From the NCBI GenBank assembly GCA_963969395.1, contig OZ017797.1, positions 26,164,001 through 26,228,000 of the forward strand: a stretch of 64,000 nt of DNA, written 5' to 3'. Source of the DNA: Pseudoscleropodium purum. Its lineage: Eukaryota > Streptophyta > Bryopsida > Hypnales > Brachytheciaceae. Made by a program: the position numbers and the translations under genes. This document shows positions 13,501 through 57,124 of the stretch, piece after piece. The notes below the pieces were generated by a model. The model saw nothing but the letters and a program-made list of their open reading frames with translations. It had not been told where the DNA came from and did no database searches. How positions within the stretch are numbered: the stretch's first letter is position 1; each line of letters begins with the position of its first letter.

Positions 13501-15996
13501 CGAAGATATGTGGTCTAATTTTGTTGTATTATGTTCTTTGATTGACTTGGAGATTTTGAACAACTTTGTTGTCAATTGGAATTGTAGTCATAACTATGTT
13601 TTTCTATCATCTAATTCCATTATGCATTCTTAATGAAGTTAGACCATATTCTATTAAGTATTCATTATAGTCATAATCTTTTCATCAATGTTGGTTGTCT
13701 TTCAAAAATTCAAAAGTTTAGTTTCTTTTGTCATAATAGATGGCAATTTTTAAAATTTTGTCAAATGCATTAATTTTTTTGCTAAGTCAAAATTATGATT
13801 TGCAATGAATGTTATGAATCATTGGCAGGGATGGAAGTTATTGCAAAGTGGAATGAAAGAGTATCCAATATTCTTGGTCATCGACAATGTCCAATCTCAT
13901 GGAGAGTCAAACAAAGAAGCACAAAAGTATTTAAATATGGAGTACAACTCAGGTAGCAAAATCATGGTTATCTCAAGGAGTCTAGTTGTTGTCAAAGACC
14001 TCTTTGGAGATCTAAGTTATTGCTTTGAAATGCCATGCCTAACAAAGAAAGAAGCGACTATGATTTTCTTGCAACAAGGAGCCCCAGAGATGGATTATTT
14101 TTCTCTTACCAAGGATGAAAAATGGGTTATTGAAAATTGCCTAAAAAAAGCTTGGTTTCCCTATCAAGGTGGACATTATCATCCTTTGGCTCTTGAAGCT
14201 GTGGCATCTTTTCTCCGTGATAGAAGTGAGACTTCCAATGTGATGTTGTGGAATCACTACCTACTAGAATATGAAAATGTCAAGGACATGACTCATGCTA
14301 TTGAACACATGTTCAGAATTCTTGGCTTGCAATTCTATAGCTTGGATAAAAAGACTCAACTCATGTTTGTAGATATTTGTCTATATGCACCCAAAGCACT
14401 TGAGTGTCCTATGCTCTCCAATTCACCTCTTGAAGACTTAATATCTTGGTTGGCTGGTGTTCATCAAATACCAAAAGAGGTGGTTAGATTCAAGGTTAGT
14501 TTTGCCAACTTTCTTCCTTCATTTCTTTCATTTACTTCTCATTTGATTGATCCTTTGAGTCTAAATTAAATGAAAGAATGTATTGAAAGATTTTGACAAT
14601 GTCTAATATCAAATGTGTGTAGGTTTTGGACTTCAAACGATTTGCCATGATCAATATTGTGGATACAGTATGTAAGATTTCAAAAGTGCAAGAAGTCATC
14701 GTTCATGATCTCTACAAAGAGTTCGCAATTTGGTTCTTGGGACAAGTTGATCGTGAAGAAGAAGTCCGAGGTATTTGGTGTATTGGCCAAGACAAAGGTT
14801 TCGAAAGTTCTTTACCTCCCACATTGCAATGCACTCCTCGAATTTGTTGGCCTGAGTTGAAAAGGATTCGGCTGGAGAACATCCGGTGCGATGGATTTGC
14901 AATGAGAAAATTGCAGGAATGGTGTAACGTTGTTGTTTTACAAATTGCGGGCTGCGAGAATTTGACCGCAATCAATTTGCAAGGACTGACTTGTCTCCGC
15001 CATTTGGAACTCAAGTCTCTTCGCAGTCTCAAGACCCTTACCTTCGTAGAAGATGGGAGTACTCAATCTACCAACAACAACAAGATGCACTCAACGCTGA
15101 AGCAGTTTTCACATCCGTCATTGCAGTACGTGATTATTGACAGACTCTCTTCTCTAGAGCTTCTTCCTTCTTTCAGCCCACTTATAAATTTAGTTTATCT
15201 CAAGGTAGTGGATTGTAGAGGCTTGACACAACCTCCAAGCATTCAACATTGCTCAAGTATAAAACGAATGTTGTTATCATGGGACCGAAATCAGAAGACC
15301 CTATCCAACTTGGAGGGACTCACTTCCTTACAAGATCTGACCATTAGATCCTTTGACATGACTTACACTGGTCGTGCATTGAAGCTTGAAGGTCTTAGTT
15401 GTTTGATCTCACTGGGAGCTTTGGATTTGTTCCAAGTACCAGTGGGAGACTTGTCAGGCCTGGAGAATCTTACTCGTGTTGAGTATGTTTCCTTAGTTAG
15501 TATGTCTCACTTGACGAGTTTAGTACCCTTGCACAATCTCGTGAAATCGTCACTGCATATGCTCGAAGTGAGGGACTCCGGGGAAGATAGATTGAAGTTG
15601 TACGATGAGCTGAGAGCGTTGCGATTTATGATTAGGACTCGCCAGCTGAAGGAAGGTTTTATAACCCACACCCCTTCCAAGATCAATATCTCGAGGGTAA
15701 GTCCTATTGACCTATGTTGCGTGAATCTATTGAAGATTTGAAATTTTGGGCATTATATTATATTTACCAGATGGGTAGCTTTACTGCGACTTTTGCATTT
15801 GTAAAGATCATTGAATATCGATGCTTAGATTGATTGTACAGTTTTGAGTGTCTTTATTTGATCGCACCTTAATCCTTTCAAACCATGGCTCTGATAGGCA
15901 GATCAATGGAGGAGATTGTCATCTGTCTATCGATTGAAGGTCGACGTGCGAACAATTTCTCGTAAAAGAGATAAGAGACGTGTATGGAGTATATGA
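10530..15996 (+). CDS. TIR-NBS-LRR (TNL) immune receptor, seven exons
   Basis: Exons 10530-10961, 11254-11339, 11541-12126, 13193-13444, 13829-14494, 14623-15696 and 15898-15996 all have GT-AG borders and compatible phases, giving about 1064 residues. Residues 1-172 are an unrecognised N-terminal region. The TIR domain (about 180-330) begins KIFLSHSGAQKPF and keeps SSKWPMLELVEF, with a glutamate at the place of the TIR NADase residue. The nucleotide-binding domain shows a P-loop GMGGLGKTT (about 389), kinase-2 IFLVIDNV (about 465), RNBS-B GSKIMVISRS, a GLPL-like HPLAL, and an MHD variant VHD (about 701). Leucine-rich repeats fill about 755-1030. In the family, effector sensing drives ATP binding and oligomerisation, and the TIR domain makes nucleotide signals. 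All exons are open, so this copy may be functional. Start and last exon are the least certain parts. Confidence 0.85.
12127..13192 (+). other. Long intron between the TIR and nucleotide-binding exons
   Basis: AT-rich sequence of 1066 bp begins gtgagt and ends ttcatag. No gene or element was recognised inside. Placement of this intron between the TIR and P-loop exons is normal for TNL genes. Confidence 0.75.
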
Positions 15997-24758: not shown

Positions 24759-25957
24759 TCATCGAAAATTCTTCCCGAGATTGGAAAATTGCTTGGGAGT
24801 TGCAATACTGGAACACTTGGGCTGAGTGATGGTTGAGTCTTTCCTCCTTGTTTGAGTCTCAGCAAGCGTTGGGAATGATGGAGACACACCAGAACCCACC
24901 TTCTTCTTGAGTTTCTTCTTTGGTTGCGGTTGTTGTTCGTCGCCCTAAACAAGGAGCAACACATAAAGCTTTGTCATCAAATATAAATTAAAGGACTTAA
25001 CATTCTGGAAACCAGGTTTGCACTTTCAGATCAAGTTACAATAAACTCACAAAACTGTGACACTTCGAGCCCTAAGCATGTTGGTGTTACTAGTCTGATG
25101 AGGTTTAAAACATCCCTGTTCGCCATTCAAAGAAGATGCCAACGTACCTCAGAGTACATTATTTGGATATCAGATGCAAAATTTGTTAAAGGTAATCTAT
25201 GGGCATCTGAACCAATCCAAAACGTTCGAACACATTACTAGAGCTAAAATTGAACAATACAAAAGCAATGGATAATTCAAATTTTGGGTACACAAGGAGG
25301 GTATCTTACCAATCCTAAGGCGAGCGCATTTGTGATGTCTTGGAGAGGCTTTCTCGTATACCACTCAGGCAGAGGACTCCGCCGGGAAGTACAATCCACT
25401 TCACCACAAGGGTCCCGATTCTCCTTGCCACGGTCATCTTTGCCAAGCCCCAGATGTGAACCTTTCGATCGAGTGGATTTTCTCAACACAGGGGATGAAA
25501 AATCTTGGACAGTCTCATCCACCAAGCTAGGGACGCTCGCCACATTGCCAGGACTGCGATCTCTGTAAATCTTTAACTTCGGGTCCTCCAAGGAAACCCT
25601 AGCCTGCGAGCTCCTTAGGACACGATCGCTGGCACCAACAACACTTCTAACACTCTGATATACGCCCTGCGAGTTCTCGAGCATTCCAAAATCTTTCAAG
25701 GGTGACCTTCGGTTGGACTGTCGGTCGAGTGCGAGCTCCACCGACTGTGCTCTTCGCAAAGTGCTGTAAGATTCGTGTACTGGACTGGTTCTGCCTTCCA
25801 GGTCTGAGTTGTCCCGGCTAGATGTTCTGGTAAACCTCAGCTTGCGAGTGATCAGGCCAGAACTACTTGGCATTGGAATGTGGTCTGATTCAAGAGCCGC
25901 GGTAGGTTGCTGCGGCTCATTTTCTCGGCTCGGCTCTGCAACTTGACTCCTCTTCAT
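24759..25957 (-). CDS. Putative cell-cycle protein with KEN box and D-box (sororin- or POLYCHOME-like)
   Basis: Two minus-strand exons, 25957-25310 and 24944-24759, join in phase 0 (gtaaga donor, gtttag acceptor) and give about 277 residues. The protein is mostly disordered in character, rich in serine and arginine. It carries a KEN box at 178-180 and RKPLQDITN at 202-210, an exact RxxLxxxxN destruction box, inside the phrase SPLPEWYTRKPLQDITN. Several SP sites (for example near residues 58, 85, 135, 155 and 194) could be CDK targets. The second exon is lysine-rich (PKKKLKKK). A tryptophan-tyrosine followed by (R/K)xPLxDIT is, from memory, typical of plant sororin-like and POLYCHOME/OSD1-like proteins, which act with cohesin or the anaphase-promoting complex. 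I cannot decide between these. KEN and D-boxes together suggest cell-cycle-timed degradation. The gene model is well supported by frame and splice signals; the function is inferred. Confidence 0.6.
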
Positions 25958-45395: not shown

Positions 45396-45660
45396 GGACG
45401 TTAAATAATAATGCCCAGAAAATGGGCCCAATAGGGTAATTGGGGGGTTTACTGGGGGTAAAAGTTTTTAAAAGCCCACTATTTTGAGCTGTCTCTAGGT
45501 TATGTTCTAAACATCTCCTAACTAATTTGGGGTCCCTGATTGGAAATATGAATTCAGAATTTGCAAAAAAAAATTTGTGTGAAAAAAAAAAAATTCCTGA
45601 GTTTTCCCCTGAGGTAAATTCAGCCTCCTGGGCCCATTTCCTGGGCATGATTTAACGTCT
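45396..45660. mobile_element. MITE-like element with ends GACGTTAAAT, 265 bp
   Basis: The left end runs gacgttaaataataatgcccagaaaatgggccca in imperfect inverted symmetry to the right end, which reversed reads gacgttaaatcatgcccagg. About 30 bp are paired. No protein is encoded. Confidence 0.65.
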
Positions 45661-46929: not shown

Positions 46930-46933
46930 TAAC

Positions 46934-47294
46934 TGTCACGGGAGGTGGTGTCGGGGGCCTCTCCACATCGTAGTGTTTTAGCGTAGGTTAGTTGTTGCTA
47001 ATCTACGTGTGTGTGACGTGCGACCGGCACACCTCATTCATCCTACGGATGAGTTTAATCCGTTAGGTTTTTTTTGTGTGTGTGTGTGTATAGTGGCGCA
47101 CACGTGCTTGACTTGACGTCTTTGTGAAGTCAAGCTTTGTGAATGAGTTAAAGAGTGTTAGTGATTACCGTTGCTTGTAAGTGATTGTTTGTCATTAGTG
47201 AAGGCTCCGCATTCTCTCATACTTCTTACACTCGTTGATTCTCCCTTTGTGGAGTGTGTGCCGCTTGACTACTCTTGTGATTTGCAACATACTC
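46934..47294 (+). repeat. Left LTR (lacks the last ~105 bp seen in the right LTR)
   Basis: Starts TGTCACGGGAGG and matches 55993-56352 throughout. Similarity stops after caacatactc. The right LTR continues for a further ~106 bp to GACA, so the end of this LTR, perhaps with the primer-binding site, seems deleted. It contains a near-perfect stem (cgtaggttag / ctaatctacg) and a possible TATA (gtgtatagtgg). Confidence 0.85.
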
Positions 47295-48447
47295 ACTTGA
47301 CAAAGACCCTCCTACGTTTCTTGCAATAGTTCTCAAATTTGATATTGAGTGATTCAAAAAAAAAATTGTGGGTAGTTTAGATTTTGTTATAGAGCGCGCG
47401 GAGACGGAGCCAATGCCACCAACGGCGCTCAAATCGGACGATTTTTGGAGAAGTTCTGAAGATTCGAAGTTGTGGAGCAAGAAGTTCTGGAGTTGCTGGA
47501 GTTCCTGGAGTTCCCGCAGTCTCATCCGCGGCGATTTTTCATCCGTGTTCGATTTTCCATCCATCCGATAGCGCGTTCACACTGTAAGTGGTTCGAGTTA
47601 TTTTCTGAACCGGTTTCATTCTATCCGTGTTCACACTGTAAGTGGTTCGAGTTATTTACTGAACCGGTTTCATTTTATCCGTGTTCACACTGTAAGTGGT
47701 TCGAGTAAATTTCTGAACCGGTTTCATTTTAACCGTGTTCACACTGTAAGTGGTTCGAGTTATTTTCTGAACCGGTTTCATTTTAGCCGTGTTCACACTG
47801 TAAGTGGTAAAAAAAAAAAAAAAGAAGTTTAGTGTGAGGGCAATTTTACTCGCTTGTAAGTGAAATTTGTGCTCATAGTTTGAGTATCTCGTCATTTATC
47901 CAATTCTAGTGTTGGATTGACATTTTATCGCGTTATCACCCATTGTTTTGCTAAGTAATGGGGGATTAGTATTTGTGAACACCGCGACTGTAGGATTCCA
48001 GCTCCTCCTTAGTTTTAGACATTTGGGGAACATCTTTGGTGTTTCTCTTGCTTTGCAGATATTGCAACTTGGGATTATCCACTGCAGGCACGTGCTAGTG
48101 GCTCTAATTCTTTTGTCAATTCTGCTTTTATGTTGTTGGGGGAGAGGATCCGGTTTTGATTTCTGGATTCTTGTGCGGTACCTCCCCCATGTTGCGGGCT
48201 TGTTGCCGGTGTTTTCCGGTGGCCCCATTTCTTGTTGTCTCAGATTGTGATAGGGTACTGTAGGGGTGAAGTCGGGTTAATGGTCGGCAAGACCTTTTTA
48301 TGTGGGGGGTTGTGGTTGGACCTGTGGTAGCCGAAGGTGATGACCGGTGATCCACATAGCTTGGTGATTTTGCAGGTGCAGGTTGCCCGTCCGTACCCTT
48401 ACCTTTTAGATAGTACCCGTAGATAGTTTCCTTGGTGGTTGTTCTTT
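47295..48447 (+). other. Retrotransposon untranslated leader
   Basis: Lies between the left LTR and the first gag ATG. It holds the 54-bp tandem array and several spurious short frames. No tRNA-complementary primer site was recognised at its start. Confidence 0.6.
47575..47809. repeat. 54-bp tandem repeat in the retrotransposon leader, 4.4 units
   Basis: Units beginning gttcacactgtaagtggttc start at 47575, 47629, 47683, 47737 and 47791, exactly 54 bp apart, with one to three substitutions between units. The array ends in a run of about 15 A. Since 54 is divisible by three, one frame on each strand is open with an 18-residue periodicity, but there is no sign that it is translated. Confidence 0.95.
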
Positions 48448-50664
48448 ATGGTGAGTACCAAGAGTCGGTATTACTGCTCCCCCTCACCAGACCACCCGGA
48501 AAGTGTTTCCACCGCTGACTTTGGGCCAGGGTCGGATACCGACGAGGCTTTTGAGCCTATTTTGGCGTTGGATACCGATCGTAGGCTTCGAGTTTGGAAT
48601 GTGGGCACGTTTGGCGACATGGAGGATGATTTTCGTCATGTTGTGCGAGATAGGTTCTCGGGACGGGCTGGGGGTATCTCCTTGCCCGATTGGCAACTCC
48701 GATTCCAGACATGGATGAAGGAGAAGCGCCAGCGGACACCGTCGTTCAACGACTGGTACGCGTTTGAGTTGTTGCCACAACATTTGGAGCTAGAGGCGCT
48801 TCAGACATACGGGAGGTGGATTGCATTGCACGCAGAGGAATTGCGCCCAGTTGAGGACTATTGGCGCGATCGTGTGGAGTTGGTGACTGCACTCAAGGAG
48901 GCTGCGGTTGCCCGAGTTCCTTCTTTTGGCGATCTGCCTAAGGATGAGGAGGGTTCCGGCTTGGGGGCCATGTCACGTTTGGCTCAAACTACATGGACGG
49001 CATTGGAGGCAGTCGGTCCTCCGCCTCGCTTCAATCCTCTGGCGCAATTTATGGCGCATTTGGAGATGGAGTATGGGGTTTTTTGGCGTGATCAGATGTG
49101 TCGCATCTAGGATTTCCGCCGTGAAAAGGAAGATACCCCACGCACTATGTATACTCGATTATCACGGTTGGCAACGGAGGCTGGTGATGTGTTCACGGAA
49201 CGTCAGCTTGTGAAGATTTTTATCTCCAAGCTAGACAAGCGGATGGTTGAGTTGATCAGCCCACACCTCCTCTTCCAATACGGCGGCAACGCGACCTTGG
49301 CTCAGGCATTTGCCGAGGTGGAAGCGCTTGACCGGGCATTAGGCGTGAGCGAGGCTACAGACTTGGTCACGTCGCTTTTAGAGGCTCCCAAGCCCAAGAA
49401 GCTTGCTACAGCTACAGGTAGTTTGGCGGAGGCACAACCTGAAAAGGTTGTGTATTGCTCGGCTTGTGGAGAGGCCGGTCACACCAAAGGGGACCCCAAT
49501 TGTCCTAAAAAGAAGGGGGCAGGGGCGGGGAAGACTAAGCCCAAGTCCGAGGCGGCCAAACCTGCGGAGAAGACTGGGGGCAAGGGGAAGAAGCTTGTGA
49601 CATGCTTTCATTGTGGCAAGCTCGGCCACAATGATGAGAATTGCTTCATTCTTCATCTTGAGAAGCGCCCGACATCTTCAGGTGGCGGATCAGAGGCTGT
49701 GAAATCACTTCAAGCCGAATTGGCGGAGCTAAAGAAGCAGATGAGCGCGATGGCTTTTTTGGGGCAAGTGGCAGACACACGGCCTGCGGTGAGGGGTCAG
49801 GGCTCATCTTTAGCCCTAGATTGCTACTTGTATGGTGCTTCAGGGGAGGTGGTGGCAGCGGTTGCCACTCGTGCTCAGACCATTGCACAGGCGGTGGCAC
49901 CCTCTTCCATTGTGCCGGGTAGTAGTAATTGTTCACGCCATGTGGTTTTGCTGGACCACATTGGTCAGGCCCGGCTACCTCTTTCGTTCAGCATCGTGAA
50001 TGCGGCTTCTTCTACTACCGCTCCCACATCGAATCCGGTCCCACCGGTTTCTTCTAGTCGTGGAGATGCTGCACACACCTTGGCGTATAAGGTGTTGCAG
50101 TTATCGGTGTTTGTTGGCGTGGACTTTCTCACACCGGATTTTCAACCATCTGGTGTATTCCACTTGGCGGGTAGTATGTTGGAAGGCAAGGTGCCCATTC
50201 CGTCGTTGGAGGTGTCACAGGCAATGACGGCTCCATCCACTAAGGAAGATTTGGTGGCAATGCAGGCCAAGTTGGCGGCGGAGGCTATTTCTGCGTTTGA
50301 GGCCAATGCCACTTCCATACCTATGGAGCAGTCATCCAAGGATCAGTCCTTGGTCTCTGGAGTGGCTTATTTGTCTGATGTTGCAGCCCGGTCGGCACGG
50401 GAGCGACGTAGTGTATGTCCAGGGGTGATACGTTTGGTGAATGACGACGGAGTCATGGTGGTTGGCCGTACGGATGGCAACCCCACTCGAGCTACCCCCC
50501 TACGTGTTATGTTGGATTCCGGGGCTCAGCCAGTGATGATTGGCAAACAGCTAGCCCAAGATTTGGGTCTAGGTGCTTTAGACCTCAAGCCTTGCCCATT
50601 CACCATTGTCACGTCGGTTGGGGGAACGGAGAAGGCCACGGGGTACACCCGACATCCATTATAG
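48448..50664 (+). pseudogene. gag: gag and start of protease (interrupted)
   Basis: The frame starts at ATG 48448 and is broken by TAG at 49108-49110, then stays open to TAG at 50662. The gag part has no strong sequence landmarks up to two zinc knuckles: CSACGEAGHTKGDPNC (variant CX2CX4HX5C, from about 49456) and CFHCGKLGHNDENC (classic CX2CX4HX4C, from about 49602), which would bind element RNA. A retroviral-type aspartic protease follows, with the catalytic triplet in VMLDSGAQPVMIG (Asp codon at 50514). The protease is cut by the second TAG, and its C-terminal part (DILVGQQALYPLG) continues in the next segment in the same frame. Both stops could derive from CAG codons by a single transition. 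Confidence 0.85.
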
Positions 50665-52290
50665 TTGATGTTTGGCGTGGGATCTGGTCCATTGTTTTCA
50701 CATGTCTCTCTTCAGTGCGTTGTGATTGGTGCCACCAACTACGACATTTTGGTAGGTCAGCAGGCACTTTATCCACTCGGCTTTGGGATGGATAACTGGA
50801 CAGAGGAGGCTTGGATTAGGCCTGGGTGGTCTGCTGGTGATGGCAGCAAGGAGCTCATCCCCGTTGTCTTCGCATCTAGCACAGTGACTCCTACGGCGAA
50901 TGCTATGTTTGGGTGCAGTGCTTTGGCATCCGATTTGCCATGTGGTTCTACGCTTCTAGAGGAGACATATGCTTTTATGTCAGGGGTAGTTGAATCACGG
51001 GAACACGTACCACCACAGATCCCTCCACGTCATTGCAAGGATCCGGTTCCACCTTGGGGGATTCAATTGGAGCTCACTCACCGCAGTCGGGAGATTGTGG
51101 ATGCTTTGGATGTTTTGCATTACTTAGAGTATTCTTCTACCCCGTTGTTGGCTCGCACTATTCAGTGGCGTCCACCAGATGAGGGTATTACCCTCGTGGA
51201 GCTCTTTGCCGACATTGGTACAGGGCTAGCGGCGGTGTTAGAAGCTGGGCTCAGAGTACGACGGTACATTCATATGGATAGTGGCTTTGCGGCCAACTGT
51301 GCCGCTCACCATCACATCCAACGTCTTTTGGCGTTGTATCTAGAGCAGTTACCACCTTCTGAGATTCGAGGGTGTTTTGGTAAATTGCCACGTAATGTGA
51401 CCTTGATTAGTGAAGATGATCTTCGCCGATTGGGTCACGTGGACTTGGTGATTGCCGGATGGCCTTGCCAAGGCCATTTACGGGCAGGCAATGGACGTGG
51501 CTTGGATGATCCACGGTCGGGGCTCTTTGCGGATTTGCTTAGGCTCATCCAGTGGTGGATTACCCACCAATCGATGCCACCGGGGTACATTTTTGAGAAT
51601 GTACCTCCACTGGGGGATACACGGACGAAGGTGCGTGAGGATGGGGCATACATCCATCACCTTTTTGGTCCCCCCATGTATGTTGATGCCGTGGCGTTGG
51701 GCTCTTACGCCCATCGGCCACGTTGGATTTGGACCAACTTGGCATCATCGGCAACGCTCACATCTGCACTTGCACAAGTGCAACGACCCGTGCAGCGTGA
51801 GGTGGATGACATCTTGGACGACCATCGTATTTCCATAGAGGTTACCAAGGATGATGAGCCACCTTTGGCTGTGGTAAACCGCGTTGGTTTCACACGGGGG
51901 GCATTTCCCACATTGATGTGCTACCCTGGGTCTTTTGCCTTTAGGACACGCGGTCTGGGTATGGTTTGGGACTCTACTTTCCAAACTTACGAGGAGCCTT
52001 CAGCCAATGAGAGGGAGCGAGCCATGGGCTTTTTGACAGGCACCACTACGGCACCGGATCTCTCTGAGGGCCAACGTCGTTATTTGTTGGGTCAAGCTAT
52101 TGACCTTAACACTCTTGTTTGGGTTTGTGGCCTCTGTTTCGCCTTTCAGCACCGTTCACATGACCAGCCACACGTGCTGGGGGCAGACTTTGATGGTCAG
52201 GGGGCAGCGGTGCCACATCTCACAAAGAGCAAGGAAGCGGAGTTGCTTTTTCGTTTGGAGAGGCACGTAGATGAGGAGCTTCGTGCTTAG
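50665..52290 (+). pseudogene. Protease end plus DNMT3-like cytosine-5 DNA methyltransferase domain
   Basis: Open for 541 codons in the gag-pol frame. Residues 1-45 are the end of the protease. From about residue 175 a cytosine-5 methyltransferase domain runs to about 490: motif I VELFADIGTG (178-187), motif IV GWPCQGHLRAG with the catalytic cysteine at 268 (codon 51466-51468), motif VI FENVPPLGD (Glu 311), motif VIII SYAHRPRWIWTNL, motif IX around ERERAMGFL, and motif X LLGQAIDLNTLVWV. Motif order is I to X, not rearranged as in plant DRM enzymes. The AHRxRxxWxNL phrase at motif VIII resembles DNMT3-type de novo enzymes. All key residues visible here are intact. The segment between VIII and IX would be target recognition. 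The enzyme would methylate cytosines in DNA, possibly element cDNA or integration sites; that role is inference. A TAG ends the segment. Confidence 0.9.
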
Positions 52291-52881
52291 TGTGTCTTTG
52301 TAGCCTTGGCCGAGGACTTTGGTAGAGAGGATGCTGGGGATATCTTTTCCCGGTTTTATCATCACAATATGGGATTTTATGTGGATCCCGTGAGTGAGAA
52401 GGTTGGGGGCATGAATGCCCTCTTTGCTACTAAGTAGCAATCATCGGTCGTGCTGGTACGCAGTGAGTCTTCTACGGTGGAGAAGGAGACCACGGAGTTT
52501 GATGATTGGCCTTTGGAGTTAGGGCCACATCTTACCAGTGCCGAGATATGAAGGGTGCGAGCGTTCATACGTTCGTATCGTAGCTGTTTTGCCTTTAGTC
52601 TCCATGATTTGGAGGGCTATAAAGGCAAACCCATTCACATTGAGTTGGAGGACGACCACCCGATCTTCCGACGCTCGTACAAGCTCAATATTTCAGAGAA
52701 AGTTGGCGTGCAGACTCGTTGTCAGGAGTTGTTGGCCGCCAGCTTGATTGAGCTCTCTAACAGTGAATATGCTTGTGCCACAGTTATGCCATCGAAGAAG
52801 GATATCTTTGGCAACTGGACGGAGAAACGGATGTGTGGCGATTATAGACCGGTCAACCGCAAGACCAAGTCAGACCAGTAA
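52291..52881 (+). pseudogene. pol: Linker and N-terminal part of reverse transcriptase (broken)
   Basis: Continues the same frame after the TAG at 52288, with further stops at 52435 (TAG), 52549 (TGA) and 52879 (TAA). The first ~100 codons are an unrecognised linker. The N-terminal reverse-transcriptase part then shows HIELEDDHPIFRRSYKLN, a segment ELLAASLIELSNSEYACATV, and MCGDYRPVN. After TKSDQ a small deletion shifts the frame, so the rest of the domain is read one frame over. Confidence 0.85.
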
Positions 52882-52884
52882 CCG

Positions 52885-54379
52885 GTAGGAGTTATTTGAT
52901 GCGGTGGGCCACGCTAGAGTATTTAGTACTCTAGATTTGCGGTCTGGTTATCATCAGTTACCATTGATGGTGGATGACCGAGTGAAGACTGCATTCTGGG
53001 GAGTTGATCTGGATGGGAGAGATCAACTCTACCATTGGAAGTTTCTCCCATTTGGCCTCAAGAACGCACCCGCTGAGTTTCAGAGGGTGATGGACCGGGT
53101 GTTGACCGGTTTACCGTTTGCTCAATGCTACATCGATGATGTTATCATTTTTAGTAGCAACCCACAAGAGCATGTGAGGCATCTTCAGGAGGTATTTGAG
53201 AGATTACGGCAGTGGGGATTGCGTTTGCACCATGGCAAGTGCAAGTTCTTCCACGACCGGTTGCCATATTTGGGACACATGATTGTTCCAGGGGGTCTTG
53301 GCGTACAGCAGGCCAAGGTGGATGCATTGCAAAAGATTCCTGCCCCAACCGACGTGTCACGGCTTCGAGCTTTTCTTGGCTTGGCGAATTACTATCGCCG
53401 ATTTGTCAAGAACTTTAGCTTGATTGCTAAACCGTTGACTATTCTCACAAGAAAGGATCAACCATGGACTTGGGGGTGCGAGCAGGAGCATGCATTTGCT
53501 ACCTTGAAGCTGAAGCTCGGTTCAGCTCCTGTATTGCGGCGTCCGGATGCAACATGGCCCTTTCAATTGCACACAGACTGGAGTGCGGTGGGATTGGGTG
53601 CAGTATTGACTCAGAAGGATGAGGAAGGACGGGAGTATGTTGTTGCTTTTGCTTCTAGGAGCAACAACAATGCGGAGTCCAACTATTCATCCTATGAGGG
53701 GGAAGCTTTGGCAGCGGTTTGGGCCATAGCTCATTTTAGGCCTTATTTGTATGGGCAACGTTTTACGTTGGTGACCGACCACCAGCCTTTGAAGTGGCTC
53801 ATGGAGTCTGACAAGCTCACTGGCAAGCTTTCCAGGTGGGCTTTATTGCTTCAAGAGTATGATTTTGAGGTTGTACATCGGGCCGACATCACCAACTTGG
53901 ATGCAGATGGTCTTTCTCGCAATCCAAGTCCTTTGGAAGAGGATGTGACTGGTGCTAGGTGGCATGGGAATTGTGATAGGGAGTCGGTTCCGGGGTGGCA
54001 TGCAGCGGCTTATCTCACCTTGATGTCTGGCTCCGCATCGACGTTGGTTGACTTGACAACGGATGAGGAACCAGACAAGGCCCAAGTTGTTAGCGATGTG
54101 TGGGAAGACATTCCAGTCTTGCACAAGCTACAACATGGGATGCTTCCACCCGCACTTTCGGCTATGAAGCGCGATCGAGTTGAACACCGGATAACAAGGT
54201 TTCGTTGGGAGAACGGCCTTCTATTTCGGGTGTGGCCAAATGGGACTAGGCGCATAGTTCCCAGGCCAGATCAGAGGGCTTCATTGGTACGGCAAGTACA
54301 CGAAGACCTTGGTCATTTTGGTGTGCGACGGACTCATTCGATGTTGCGCAGCCAGTATTGGTGGACCGGCATGTATTAG
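52885..54379 (+). pseudogene. pol: Reverse transcriptase, RNase H and integrase zinc finger
   Basis: Continues the polymerase in a frame shifted relative to the segment before it. Reverse-transcriptase landmarks: STLDLRSGYHQ, FLPFGLKNAPAEFQRVM, and the catalytic YIDD at 53129-53140. RNase H landmarks: LHTDWSAVGLGAVL, SSYEGEALA and VTDHQPLKWL, with acidic residues in place. The integrase begins with an HHCC zinc finger (HEDLGHFGVRRTH ...), interrupted by TAG at 54377 between its histidines and cysteines. The family would copy element RNA into DNA in virus-like particles. Confidence 0.93.
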
Positions 54380-55570
54380 CAGGTCGCCACTTATGTTTCA
54401 CGGTGTGAGGTGTGTGATCAGGTATGATCCAGCTTCAACACTTTATCACCGCAGTTGCAACCTTTGCCCATTATGGGATTGGGCTATCGTTGGTCCTTGG
54501 ACTTTACTGGTCCACTTGTTGTGACTCCACGTGGAGCCAAGTATGTCTTGGTGATGGTGGAGCATTTCAGCAAGTGGATTGAGCTTGTGGCTCTTCCATA
54601 GAACTCTTCAGAGTTGGCGGCCATGGCATTCCTCGATCGAGTGTTGGCTCGTTTTGGAGCCCCAGCTGAGGTTTTGACTGATCAGGGGCGAGAGTTCCTT
54701 GGGGCTTTTGAAGCTTTGTGTACCAAGGCTTTGATTGACCATCGTACCACTTCTCGGGATCATCCGGAAGCAGACAGTTTGGCGGAGCGTGTGCTTCAGA
54801 CCGTGAAACGAGGCCTACGGAAGTATGGATTACTCCAAGGTGGCCACCGTGATTGGGATCTGATGATACCATGGATCACCATGGGGTATCGGTTTAGTCG
54901 ACAGGCTTCACTAGTTGCTGTCAGTCCGTATCAGTTGTTATACGGACGGGAGCCCATTCTACCCTGTTCTGTACGGGAGAAGTTGGCTCCTGTTGTGGAT
55001 TTGGATGATCCAGAGGTGTGGATCCAGTGTTTGCATGACCGAGCGGAGTTCTTCAAGCGGGCCATGCCGATGGCCATGGAGAATTTATCCATTGCTCAGC
55101 ATCGCGACAAGCTACGGTACGCTCGCATTCGTAGCGGCGCCTACCGACCTCAGTTGCGACGTTTTTCCACGGGGGATTACGTTTATTTGCAGCGTAAGGC
55201 GCCCACGACGTTGGACGTCAAGGCTGGACGGACCATTCTTCGCGTGAAGAATGTGTTGCCCAGTGGTATTTTATTGTTGGAAGGCATGGATGGCCGAGAG
55301 TGTCAGGAGCACTCTAAAAATTGTACTCCTTGCCATTTACCCATTGATGGCTCCGTTCATCCTGAGTTGGCCGTTGTGCCAGAGGGCCTTCCATGTTTTG
55401 TGTGTGGTGAGAAGAAGGGCGCTGCTACCATGTTATTGTGCGATCATTGCCAGCGTGGATGGCATATGGCTTGCTTGACGCCGCCTCTTTCTACTCTACT
55501 GTTCGGGGATTGGACTTGTCCTCGTTGTAGGGGGTCTTCTAACCATGTTTCACGTAGTGAACTGGCTTGA
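54380..55570 (+). pseudogene. pol: Integrase catalytic core with C-terminal PHD finger
   Basis: Same frame as the preceding segment. After the cysteines of the zinc finger (CEVCDQ) come a TGA at 54425 and a TAG at 54599. The DDE core is present: SLDFTGP, VLTDQGREF and LAERVLQ. A GDYVYLQRKAP segment follows, as in the usual GPY/F region. The last ~60 residues form a PHD finger: CFVC, MLLCDHCQRGWHMACLTPPL, WTCPRC, a full C4HC3 zinc pattern (55394 to about 55528). In chromoviruses this position holds a chromodomain. PHD fingers typically read histone H3 tails, so this one could steer integration to particular chromatin; that is inference. The frame ends at TGA 55568-55570. Confidence 0.92.
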
Positions 55571-55885
55571 CTTCCTCGTGGACTTTCACTAGTGTGGTGT
55601 GTTGCCATCTAGTTAGAGTTCTTGGTTTTGTTTCAGACATAGGCAACGTGAAGATTGACCAAGGGATTGACAACAAAGTTGCCTAAGGCGATTAAAGATG
55701 GGGCTCACATTGCACCCGGCCTACCCTCTCTTTGTTACTTCTCCATATGCTTATTGATTCGGCGATGGATTACCTTTTGACTAGATGCGTATAGTTGTTG
55801 CAGCGACATCACCGTGGCGATAGTCTATGTTGTGTTGTTTGGTCCTAGCGAATTTGAGGGGCTCTTTATCCACTAGGGGGGGCAC
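55571..55885 (+). other. Retrotransposon 3' untranslated region with polypurine tract
   Basis: Non-coding stretch ending in aggggggg at 55875-55882, a candidate polypurine tract for plus-strand priming. Normally the LTR begins right after it, but here ~110 bp intervene. Confidence 0.6.
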
Positions 55886-55990
55886 TCAAGGGTATACTTA
55901 GCATAGATGTGTTTGACTATGCTTTTTGTTTGTTTGATGTTGGTTGAGACTCTCGATCTATTGTGGTTATCGATCTTTCTTTACACGACA
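55886..55990. repeat. 105-bp segment, extra copy of the right LTR end
   Basis: tcaagggtatacttagcata ... tttacacgaca here is nearly identical to 56354-56458, with three or four substitutions. It sits between the polypurine tract and the start of the right LTR. Confidence 0.9.
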
Positions 55991-55992
55991 GC

Positions 55993-56458
55993 TGTCACAA
56001 GAGGTGGCGTCGGGGGCCTCTCCACATCGTAGTGTTTTAGCGTAGGTTAGTTGTTGCTAATCTACGTGTGTGTGTAACGTGCGACCGGCACACCTCATTC
56101 ATCCTACGGATGAGTTTAATCCATTAGGATTTTGTGTGTGTGTGTGTATAGTGGCGCACACGTGCTTGGCTTGACGTCTTTGTCAAGTCAAGCTTTGTGA
56201 GTGAGTTAGAGAGTGTTAGTGATTACCATTGCTTGTAAGTGATTGTTTGTCATTAGTGAAGGCTCCGCATTCTCTCATACTTCTTACACTCGTTGATTCT
56301 CTCTTTGTGGAGTGTGTGTCGCTTGACTACTCTTATGATTTGCAACATACTCTTCAAGGGTATACTTAGCATAGTTGTATTTGACTATGCTTTTCGTTTG
56401 TTTGATGTTGGTTGAGACTCTCGATCTATTGTGGTTATCGATCTTTCTTTACACGACA
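55993..56458 (+). repeat. Right LTR
   Basis: Begins TGTCACAAGAGG and ends ACACGACA, giving inverted TGTC/GACA ends. The first 360 bp match the left LTR; the last ~106 bp do not occur there. TAAC follows directly, matching the four bases before the left LTR. Confidence 0.85.
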
Positions 56459-56900
56459 TAACTTACAAGCTTTAAAAAGCACCCTCTAACATATAGGTAC
56501 ATTTTTCTTTCTTCATTGCACTGTCAAAAGTAATATACATTTCAAGAGGTGGGCAATAGTTTTCATATCCACAACATTTATACTTTAAAAATTCACAACT
56601 AATTTAAAAGAAGTCCCCAAAATATGAAATGACTTGGGTTAAATGCCAATCCCATTTTTTCCTTTTCTATCATACAATTAATCTCAAAGTGAACTCTAGT
56701 TTGTAGAAGGGGCATTAAAGGAAGATTTAATTAAGAATAATAAAAAAGAAGCACAACACCAAATTCCAACAAACTAAGTTTGGGTGTTTATAAGGGCTTC
56801 ATCTTGTGCTTTCTTAAACTCCAGCTCCTAATCCCTCAGTCAATGCACTTTATGATTAACTTTGATATTTTACTGAAAAATATTTCAAGGACTAAGTTTT

Positions 56901-57124
56901 GGCCAAAGAGGATTGATCCCTCTATTGCCCTATGTTTTACCCTTGTAGAAAACCCTAAAGTTTTTTTATTTGCCACATATGATAAAATTTGCAAATTCTG
57001 AACTCATATTTGCAACCACAAACTTCAATTATGTGAGGAGACAAAATTTAAGTGGCACAAAATAGGGGATAATTTTGACATTTACCCTCTGGTGAGGCAA
57101 TAGAGGGGTCAATCCTCCCTGGCC
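56901..57124. mobile_element. MITE-like element, GGCCAGGGAGG family, copy 2 (224 bp)
   Basis: Left end ggccaaagaggattgatccc and right end reversed ggccagggaggattgacccc, both followed by tctattgcc. The interior is similar to 40607-40845 in the same orientation. Confidence 0.75.

What the first reader, a model, noticed from the sequence alone, without database searches (positions are those of the whole stretch)
51180..52140. A DNMT3-like DNA methyltransferase embedded in a Ty3/Gypsy polyprotein
Seen: a cytosine-5 methyltransferase domain with motifs I, IV (Pro-Cys-Gln), VI (Glu-Asn-Val), VIII, IX and X in normal order, in the same frame as gag-protease and between protease and reverse transcriptase. 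Known: retrotransposons that captured cytosine-5 methyltransferases have been reported in charophyte algae and dinoflagellates (de Mendoza and colleagues, 2018). Inference: if the host is a land plant, this extends the phenomenon. The retained catalytic residues suggest selection before the copy died. The element might methylate its own cDNA or its target, hiding or regulating itself.
Basis: partly seen in the sequence, partly recalled or inferred. Interest (0 to 1): 0.95.

Follow-up and report, generated by a model that had tools for sequence, protein, structure and literature searches.

The report
DNA methylase riding a moss retrotransposon
A family of jumping genes in a probable moss and in liverworts carries its own copy of the kind of enzyme that cells use to mark and silence DNA, something reported before in algae but said to be absent from land plants, and its repeats suggest an unusual, circle-based way of inserting itself.

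Summary
Confirmed and extended. Window 51175-52152 encodes an unrearranged DNMT3-type cytosine-5 methyltransferase between protease and reverse transcriptase of a Ty3/Gypsy element (46934-56458; target duplication TAAC). It is family-wide: 104 DNMT places listed in the 313-Mb genome; 78 of 88 listed RT places have one upstream. The host is a land plant, probably a moss; relatives occur in the liverworts Calypogeia and Marchantia, in Closterium and in unnamed sources. A 2019 paper says land plants lack transposon-encoded DNA methylases. This copy is dead; its motif I glycine is Asp.

New features: (1) the DNMT lies upstream of a UAG-CARYYA readthrough context in 24 of 24 copies read, so it is probably made with Gag-protease; (2) a PHD finger ends the integrase; (3) self-priming, with compensatory change between two families; (4) three permuted repeat layouts, with perfect 4-bp duplications in 14 of 15 testable copies, as if a circle were opened at an internal integrase site. 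Best inference: packaged DNMT methylates the element's own circular cDNA before PHD-guided integration. Activity and role are untested.

The parts
46934..47294 (+). Repeat A1 (5' terminus of the inserted element; starts TGTCAC, preceded by target duplication TAAC at 46930-46933)
47295..47307 (+). Proposed primer-binding site ACTTGACAAAGAC, directly after A1, complementary to 13 nt inside repeat A2 of this copy (self-priming)
47572..47841 (+). Tandem array of a unit of 54 bp in the 5' leader
48439..50664 (+). gag (weak CCHC-like matches below cut-off) and aspartic protease-like segment (about 50494-50637); frame broken in this copy
51175..52152 (+). DNMT3-type cytosine-5 methyltransferase domain, motifs I-X in order; catalytic Cys codon 51466; motif I Gly is Asp at 51211
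52435..52443 (+). In-frame UAG followed by CAATCA (CARYYA readthrough consensus) between the DNMT and RT frames
   Evidence: consensus from PMC2754532 (passages)
52555..54379 (+). Reverse transcriptase and RNase H (a frame change lies between 52881 and 52904 in this copy)
54104..55345 (+). Integrase (H2C2 zinc-binding match; rve core match weak in this copy)
   Evidence: strong rve match in family B copy L031
55394..55528 (+). PHD finger at the integrase C-terminus
55875..55882 (+). Polypurine tract AGGGGGGG just before B1
55886..55990 (+). Repeat B1
55987..55996 (+). Palindrome GACAGCTGTC at the B1|A2 junction, proposed internal integrase site
55993..56352 (+). Repeat A2
56354..56458 (+). Repeat B2 (3' terminus, ends ACGACA, followed by target duplication TAAC at 56459-56462)

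Best explanation
This is a decayed copy of an abundant, old Ty3/Gypsy family of land plants that carries a DNMT3-type DNA methyltransferase and a PHD finger. Shown by sequence: the DNMT sits between protease and RT, upstream of a CARYYA-type UAG; the integrase ends in a PHD finger; a site after A1 is complementary to repeat A; copies are inserted with 4-bp duplications at TGTC...GACA ends that lie at the B|A boundary, not at the ends that PBS and PPT would give. Inferred: (a) most ribosomes stop at the UAG, so the DNMT is made with Gag-protease and packaged in quantity, while a minority read through to RT-integrase-PHD; (b) the RNA 5' region primes reverse transcription on itself; (c) the resulting B-A-internal-B-A cDNA is circularised and the integrase opens it at GACA-GC-TGTC, giving A-internal-B-A-B, A-B-A-internal-B, or A-internal-B from one-LTR circles; (d) the packaged DNMT methylates this cDNA before or at integration, so it enters the genome already marked like host heterochromatin, and the PHD finger steers the integrase to chromatin with unmodified H3K4.
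For: DNMT3 identity. Family-wide. Deep conservation: catalytic Cys and motif VI Glu and Asn each in 73 of 74 relatives with enough of the domain. Land plants. Readthrough: UAG-CARYYA in 24 of 24 copies of two families, and protein frames from other sources ending at the homologous place (C-termini); Type I contexts gave 32% (TMV) and 11% (BNYVV) readthrough in plants (PMC2754532 passages). Self-priming: usually 12-13 nt (family A) and 19-20 nt (family B) of different sequence at the same place; 22 nt in L023. Circle: three layouts, with perfect 4-bp duplications in 14 of 15 testable copies; the A2|B2 junction carries extra bases in 2 of 11 copies, in L009 matching 7 of 8 bases of its own PBS region, while B1|A2 shows no insertion in 14 copies (7 the exact palindrome, 7 with one or two substitutions). 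PHD closest to PHF12, CHD4, KDM5, PHF21A, ATXR5 and UHRF1.
Against: No activity, expression, packaging or methylation data. A K. nitens element DNMT gave no methylation in yeast, called inconclusive by its authors. Copies decay by C-to-T at CG, CHG and CHH, so the family does not escape host methylation. Selection on the DNMT inside the young family is not significant. Identity of the stop context among family A copies is partly recent common descent. The A-B-A-internal-B layout was seen once. Three of 20 family A copies show no self-complement in the place searched. Seven of 74 relatives have Glu for the motif IV Pro.
Confidence: 0.5

Rival explanations
1. The DNMT acts on host or target DNA: after integration it silences neighbours, competing elements or the element's own older copies, which lowers harm to the host.
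For: A PHD finger closest to several readers of unmodified H3 (reader roles recalled) in the same element; family copies carry heavy CG, CHG and CHH type decay, as if heavily methylated.
Against: The host has its own DRM-like genes (L039, L044) and a MET1-like gene (L045), identified by my reading of motifs, which may suffice to explain the decay. No elements without a DNMT were compared.
Confidence: 0.25
2. The domain no longer methylates DNA: it is kept as a nucleic-acid-binding or structural part of the Gag-protease product, or it acts on RNA.
For: 7 of 74 relatives have Glu in place of the motif IV Pro; three Closterium proteins match the domain with an internal gap, which may also be a fault of gene prediction.
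Against: Catalytic Cys, motif VI Glu-Asn and motif VIII Arg are kept in 71 to 73 of 74; the closest solved families are active DNA enzymes (activity recalled).
Confidence: 0.15
3. The DNMT is a private insertion or assembly chimera in this copy.
For: None found.
Against: 104 DNMT places in the genome; 78 of 88 listed RT places have a DNMT place upstream; 93 related proteins, of which 89 match the DNMT profile.
Confidence: 0.01
4. The split repeats arose after insertion by recombination or as tandem arrays, not from circles; A-internal-B copies lost A2-B2 by recombination between B1 and B2.
For: B1 and B2 are near-identical (mean 0.968 in 11 copies) and could recombine; tandem LTR structures are common in plants (title and passages of PMC11899658).
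Against: Perfect 4-bp duplications flank the permuted ends in 14 of 15 testable copies; PBS and PPT lie where only a B-A repeat order makes sense; extra junction bases occur only at A2|B2. Recombination could still explain the A-internal-B form.
Confidence: 0.25
5. The UAG is an ordinary stop, and RT-integrase is made by re-initiation or from another RNA.
For: No protein data; no Rfam family match was found in the element.
Against: The CARYYA context in both families, which differ only at a Y position (CAATCA, CAACCA); RT follows in the same frame.
Confidence: 0.15

Closest known systems
KnitGypsy-Dnmt3 of Klebsormidium nitens (de Mendoza et al. 2018, PMC5890265; sections 9-11 read, term search of the rest)
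   Same: Gypsy domain set, intronless unrearranged DNMT3-type domain inside the polyprotein, and repeats described there as having the structure of a DIRS element.
   Different: Alga, not land plant. The main text has no hit for PHD; readthrough stop, self-priming and insertion layouts are not mentioned in the sections read. Sequences could not be compared here.
SymbioDIRS-Dnmt3 of Symbiodinium (same paper)
   Same: DNMT3-type domain in a retrotransposon Pol; its DNMTs methylated CG in yeast (section 10).
   Different: DIRS class, in dinoflagellates; ours has a DDE integrase and target duplications.
PAT/DIRS retrotransposons (repeat layout by recall)
   Same: A1-internal-B1-A2-B2 split direct repeats.
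   Different: Those use a tyrosine recombinase without target duplication (recalled); here an rve/H2C2 integrase and 4-bp duplications.
Tcn1 clade / Tf1-Sushi chromoviruses (PMC6317226 passages)
   Same: Predicted self-priming in plant Gypsy elements.
   Different: Chromodomain there; here a PHD finger. The survey's main text has no hit for methyltransferase or PHD.
Host DNMT3 and DRM enzymes
   Same: DNMT3 catalytic fold and motif order.
   Different: GWPCQ in place of GSPCN in motif IV; encoded by an element; the PHD finger is on the integrase, not an ADD domain beside the DNMT.
Tobamovirus UAG-CARYYA readthrough (PMC2754532 passages)
   Same: Same stop and hexanucleotide consensus.
   Different: Here it divides Gag-protease-DNMT from RT-integrase.

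Membership tests
DNMT3-type cytosine-5 methyltransferase | C5-methylase profile match above cut-off | tested here: met
   34.5 bits against cut-off 22
DNMT3-type cytosine-5 methyltransferase | Closer to DNMT3 than to DRM, DNMT2 or bacterial enzymes | tested here: met
   sequence profile and fold ranking; no tree with plant or algal host DNMT3 sequences
DNMT3-type cytosine-5 methyltransferase | Unrearranged motif order I to X (not DRM) | tested here: met
DNMT3-type cytosine-5 methyltransferase | All catalytic motifs intact in the window copy | tested here: not met
   motif I Gly is Asp at 51211; Gly in 61 of 62 relatives
DNMT3-type cytosine-5 methyltransferase | De novo methylation of DNA | not testable with these tools
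   needs an enzyme assay
Ty3/Gypsy LTR retrotransposon | gag-protease-RT-RNase H-integrase order with rve integrase | tested here: met
   protease and rve matches below cut-off in this copy; family B L031, rve E=1e-13
Ty3/Gypsy LTR retrotransposon | Two complete LTRs at the ends | tested here: not met
   split repeats A-internal-B-A-B
DIRS/PAT order | Split direct repeats | tested here: met
DIRS/PAT order | Tyrosine recombinase and no target duplication | tested here: not met
   integrase matches; 4-bp duplications
KnitGypsy-Dnmt3 lineage | DNMT3 domain in a Gypsy polyprotein with DIRS-like repeats | tested here: met
   against the text
KnitGypsy-Dnmt3 lineage | Sequence kinship with the K. 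nitens elements | not tested
   no hit bore the name Klebsormidium; sequences not obtained
Tcn1 / Tf1-Sushi chromoviruses | Self-priming PBS | tested here: met
   complement of 12 nt or more in 15 of 20 family A copies, 19-20 nt in both family B copies tested
Tcn1 / Tf1-Sushi chromoviruses | Chromodomain | tested here: not met
   PHD finger instead; no chromodomain among the Pfam matches of the window's integrase frame

The most novel reading that the evidence does not exclude
Land plants have long hosted an LTR element that builds its own DNMT3 into its particles at Gag level, methylates its circular cDNA, and integrates from the circle by a DDE integrase acting on an inherited internal palindrome: a natural circle-junction integration pathway coupled to self-methylation.
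Probability: 0.3. Interest if true: 0.93.

Novelty: new variant of a known kind. Interest (0 to 1): 0.82.

Why it matters
A published opinion states that transposon-encoded DNA methylases are absent from land plants and explains why (PMC6338049, passages). Element-type DNMTs are present in liverworts, including the model Marchantia, and in this probable moss. Model plants would make it testable why a transposon carries the host's kind of silencing enzyme. The repeat layouts point to integration from circles by a DDE integrase, contrary to the textbook linear route (recalled).

Tried and rejected
Private insertion or chimera: rejected. DRM origin: rejected by motif order and ranking. Ordinary LTR pair: rejected; the repeats are permuted. 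tRNA primer site: none seen by eye at A1's end; a self-complement found instead. Selection test from shared versus private variants in family A: DNMT 33 N and 21 S shared against 121 N and 50 S private, p=0.24; all seven regions together p=0.013; so weak. Origin of the PHD finger from the ADD domain of DNMT3: not supported, the closest solved chains are ordinary PHD fingers. Kinship with K. nitens: not testable. One versus two captures of the DNMT: trees, no host algal DNMT3 sequences as yardstick, so open. Rfam: no match in the element.

Full report
1. What is there. Window 46934-56458 is one inserted element. The ORF at 50665-52290 contains a C5-methylase domain (PF00145, E=2e-8). The window domain alone finds DNMT3C/3A/3B in the PDB (E 2e-6 to 7e-6 in the top rows). 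A profile from 32 rows gives DNMT3A 8e-21, DRM 3e-11 to 3e-8, HaeIII 2e-7, HhaI 2e-6 and DNMT2 4e-4. The AlphaFold2 model (416 residues, 32 rows, mean pLDDT 86.4) has only DNMT3-family entries in the 50 rows listed, of 965 matches. Motifs I, IV, VI, VIII, IX and X follow in unrearranged order (motif names recalled). Upstream are gag, weak CCHC-like matches below cut-off and an aspartic-protease match (E=1.6e-4, just under its cut-off); downstream RT, RNase H, H2C2, a weak rve match and a PHD finger. The copy is dead: stops (e.g. 50662), a frame change between 52881 and 52904, and Asp for the motif I glycine that 61 of 62 relatives keep.

2. Family-wide, not private. In the host genome (313 Mb, 52 contigs) the domain matches 104 places, a lower bound since 100 of 187 candidates were scored; 26 hits cover nearly the whole 416-residue query at 78-100% identity, the window included, and a second family lies near 48%. 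Of 88 RT places listed (87 of 1037 candidates scored), 78 have a DNMT place upstream on the same strand within 10 kb; ten do not. One of the ten (C40:44310432) has a weak PF00145 place 1.8 kb upstream. I fetched 20 copies of family A (L009-L028), three of family B (L029-L031) and one decayed copy (L032).

3. Who else has it. Two protein searches gave 47 and 56 hits, 93 distinct proteins, of which 89 match the DNMT profile (P0032, P0041, P0042 and P0045 do not). For Marchantia only the gag-DNMT frame was seen, not what follows it. A host gene in the window (25280-25957, minus) has 9 hits, the only named one Physcomitrium patens at 46%; with DRM-like (L039, L044) and MET1-like (L045) genes, which I identified by reading their motifs, the host is a land plant and probably a moss. 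Species not determined.

4. Three architectures. (I) gag-protease-DNMT, stop, RT-RNase H-integrase-PHD, seen whole in this host; the liverwort frames and many unnamed ones also end soon after the DNMT. (II) DNMT-RT in one frame (six long unnamed proteins, and Closterium P0043 and P0044). (III) RT-RNase H-DNMT-integrase, the full order seen in P0073, P0086 and P0088; a PHD finger follows the integrase in P0073, P0078, P0090 and P0092. In the RT tree (17 rows, careful; type I only from this host) type III is one side of a branch (99/99), I and II the other. The DNMT tree (80 rows plus DNMT3A, quick) agrees in outline with support 85 and 94, but not cleanly: P0075 (type II) and P0084, P0085, P0091 stand outside both groups, and P0071, whose frame has no RT before the DNMT, and P0087 lie among type III. 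DNMT and RT were thus largely inherited together; one capture followed by relocation, or two captures, cannot be told apart here. Motif IV is GWPCQ in most; 7 of 74 have Glu for Pro.

5. The stop between DNMT and RT. In 21 of 21 family A copies (window included) and 3 of 3 family B copies read, an in-frame UAG is followed by CAATCA or CAACCA, both CARYYA. The agreement among family A copies partly reflects recent descent; the weight lies on two families at about half protein identity, and on protein frames from other sources ending at the homologous place (C-termini, e.g. ...NALSATK). PMC2754532 (passages) gives 32% and 11% readthrough for two viral Type I contexts in plants. The DNMT should therefore be made with Gag-protease, not with RT. 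This is inference.

6. PHD finger. PF00628 E=2e-10; 73-80% identical between families A and B, like RT (76-79%) and unlike gag (27-45%) or the DNMT (51-54%). Closest solved relatives include PHF12, CHD4, KDM5, PHF21A, ATXR5 and UHRF1, several of which read unmodified H3 (recalled). They are ordinary PHD fingers, not the ADD type.

7. Repeats and insertion. The layout is A1 (360 bp) - internal - B1 (105 bp) - A2 - B2. Family B has B1-A2-B2 in L029. Inserted ends are TGTC...GACA. Target duplications of 4 bp: family A, 12 of 13 testable perfect (8 of 9 A-internal-B-A-B, 4 of 4 A-internal-B), 8 of 21 copies untestable; family B, two testable, both perfect by my reading: L030 (AGGG, A-internal-B) and L031 (TTCC, A-B-A-internal-B); L029 untestable. 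The polypurine tract lies before B1 and the proposed PBS after A1, so reverse transcription should yield B-A-internal-B-A. The integrated forms are its circular permutations opened at B|A. B1|A2 reads GACAGCTGTC in 7 of the 14 family A copies that show the junction and has one or two substitutions in the other 7; A2|B2 has extra bases in 2 of 11 copies (L009 8, L023 3), and in L009 7 of the 8 match its own PBS region, as expected of end-joined cDNA. Within-copy identity exceeds between-copy identity for A (0.970 against 0.954) and B (0.968 against 0.951), n=11. The A-B-A-internal-B form rests on one copy, and A-internal-B could also come from B1-B2 recombination.

8. Self-priming. The bases after A1 are complementary to a stretch about 183 bases into A. 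Of 20 family A copies with A1, 15 have a perfect match of 12 nt or more in A1, A2 or both (the window in A2 only; L023 22 nt); L022 and L024 have 10 nt; L009, L014 and L026 have none of 8 nt or more at the offsets searched (L009's sequence there is altered). In family B the sequence differs, but 19 and 20 nt match in L031 and L030. This compensatory change argues for pairing. Plant self-priming is known in Tcn1 and TAR lineages (PMC6317226, passages).

9. Decay. Family A differences from the per-column majority: C-to-T type changes at CG 8.2%, CHG 7.9%, CHH 2.0%, against 0.2% for transitions at A/T. The copies were probably methylated in all plant contexts; whether by host or by themselves is not told, and no control family was measured.

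10. Literature. PMC5890265 (sections 9-11 and a term search) reports KnitGypsy-Dnmt3 with DIRS-like repeats, and yeast activity only for the SymbioDIRS enzymes. PMC6338049 (passages) says such transposons are not present in land plants. PMC12344493 (passages) speaks of streptophytes and dinoflagellates. The passages shown from PMC6453930, PMC9289625, PMC9033089 and PMC6317226 mention none in land plants. The listings of ten full-text searches (at most 25 rows each) show no title or abstract start that reports DNMT-bearing retrotransposons in land plants; rows beyond the listings, subscription papers and supplements were not seen.

11. Verdict. Identity and land-plant presence are firm. Function is inference: methylating own cDNA at Gag-level dosage is my first choice, at even odds overall. 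New variant of a known kind.

Noticed in passing
window 13805-15741 +: Frames resembling a plant NLR-type resistance gene: leucine-rich-repeat matches in the second frame; the NB-ARC reading of the first is by eye only (no Pfam match).
   Followed up: partly
window 25277-25957 -: Host frame whose C-terminus resembles POLYCHOME/GIG1-like cell-cycle regulators (recalled; no Pfam match); best named hit Physcomitrium patens, 46%.
   Followed up: partly
L043 (C47:11452300-11453900): Remnant of a third DNMT-element lineage in the same genome, by eye like P0018, distinct from families A and B.
   Followed up: no
P0073, P0078, P0090, P0092: Gypsy polyproteins of unnamed source with the DNMT before the integrase (after RNase H in P0073) plus a PHD finger: a second position for the same kind of domain.
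   Followed up: partly
P0043, P0044, P0046 (Closterium): Element DNMTs that match the profile with an internal gap; P0043 and P0044 also have Glu for the motif IV Pro (AGWECQ): possibly dead or altered enzymes, or gene-prediction faults.
   Followed up: no
window 45514-45593 and 56962-57041: Inverted repeat of 80 nt, 71% complementary, flanking the element outside its target duplication.
   Followed up: no
L023: PBS region extended to 22 nt complementary to repeat A, as if the self-primer RNA had been copied into the element.
   Followed up: partly
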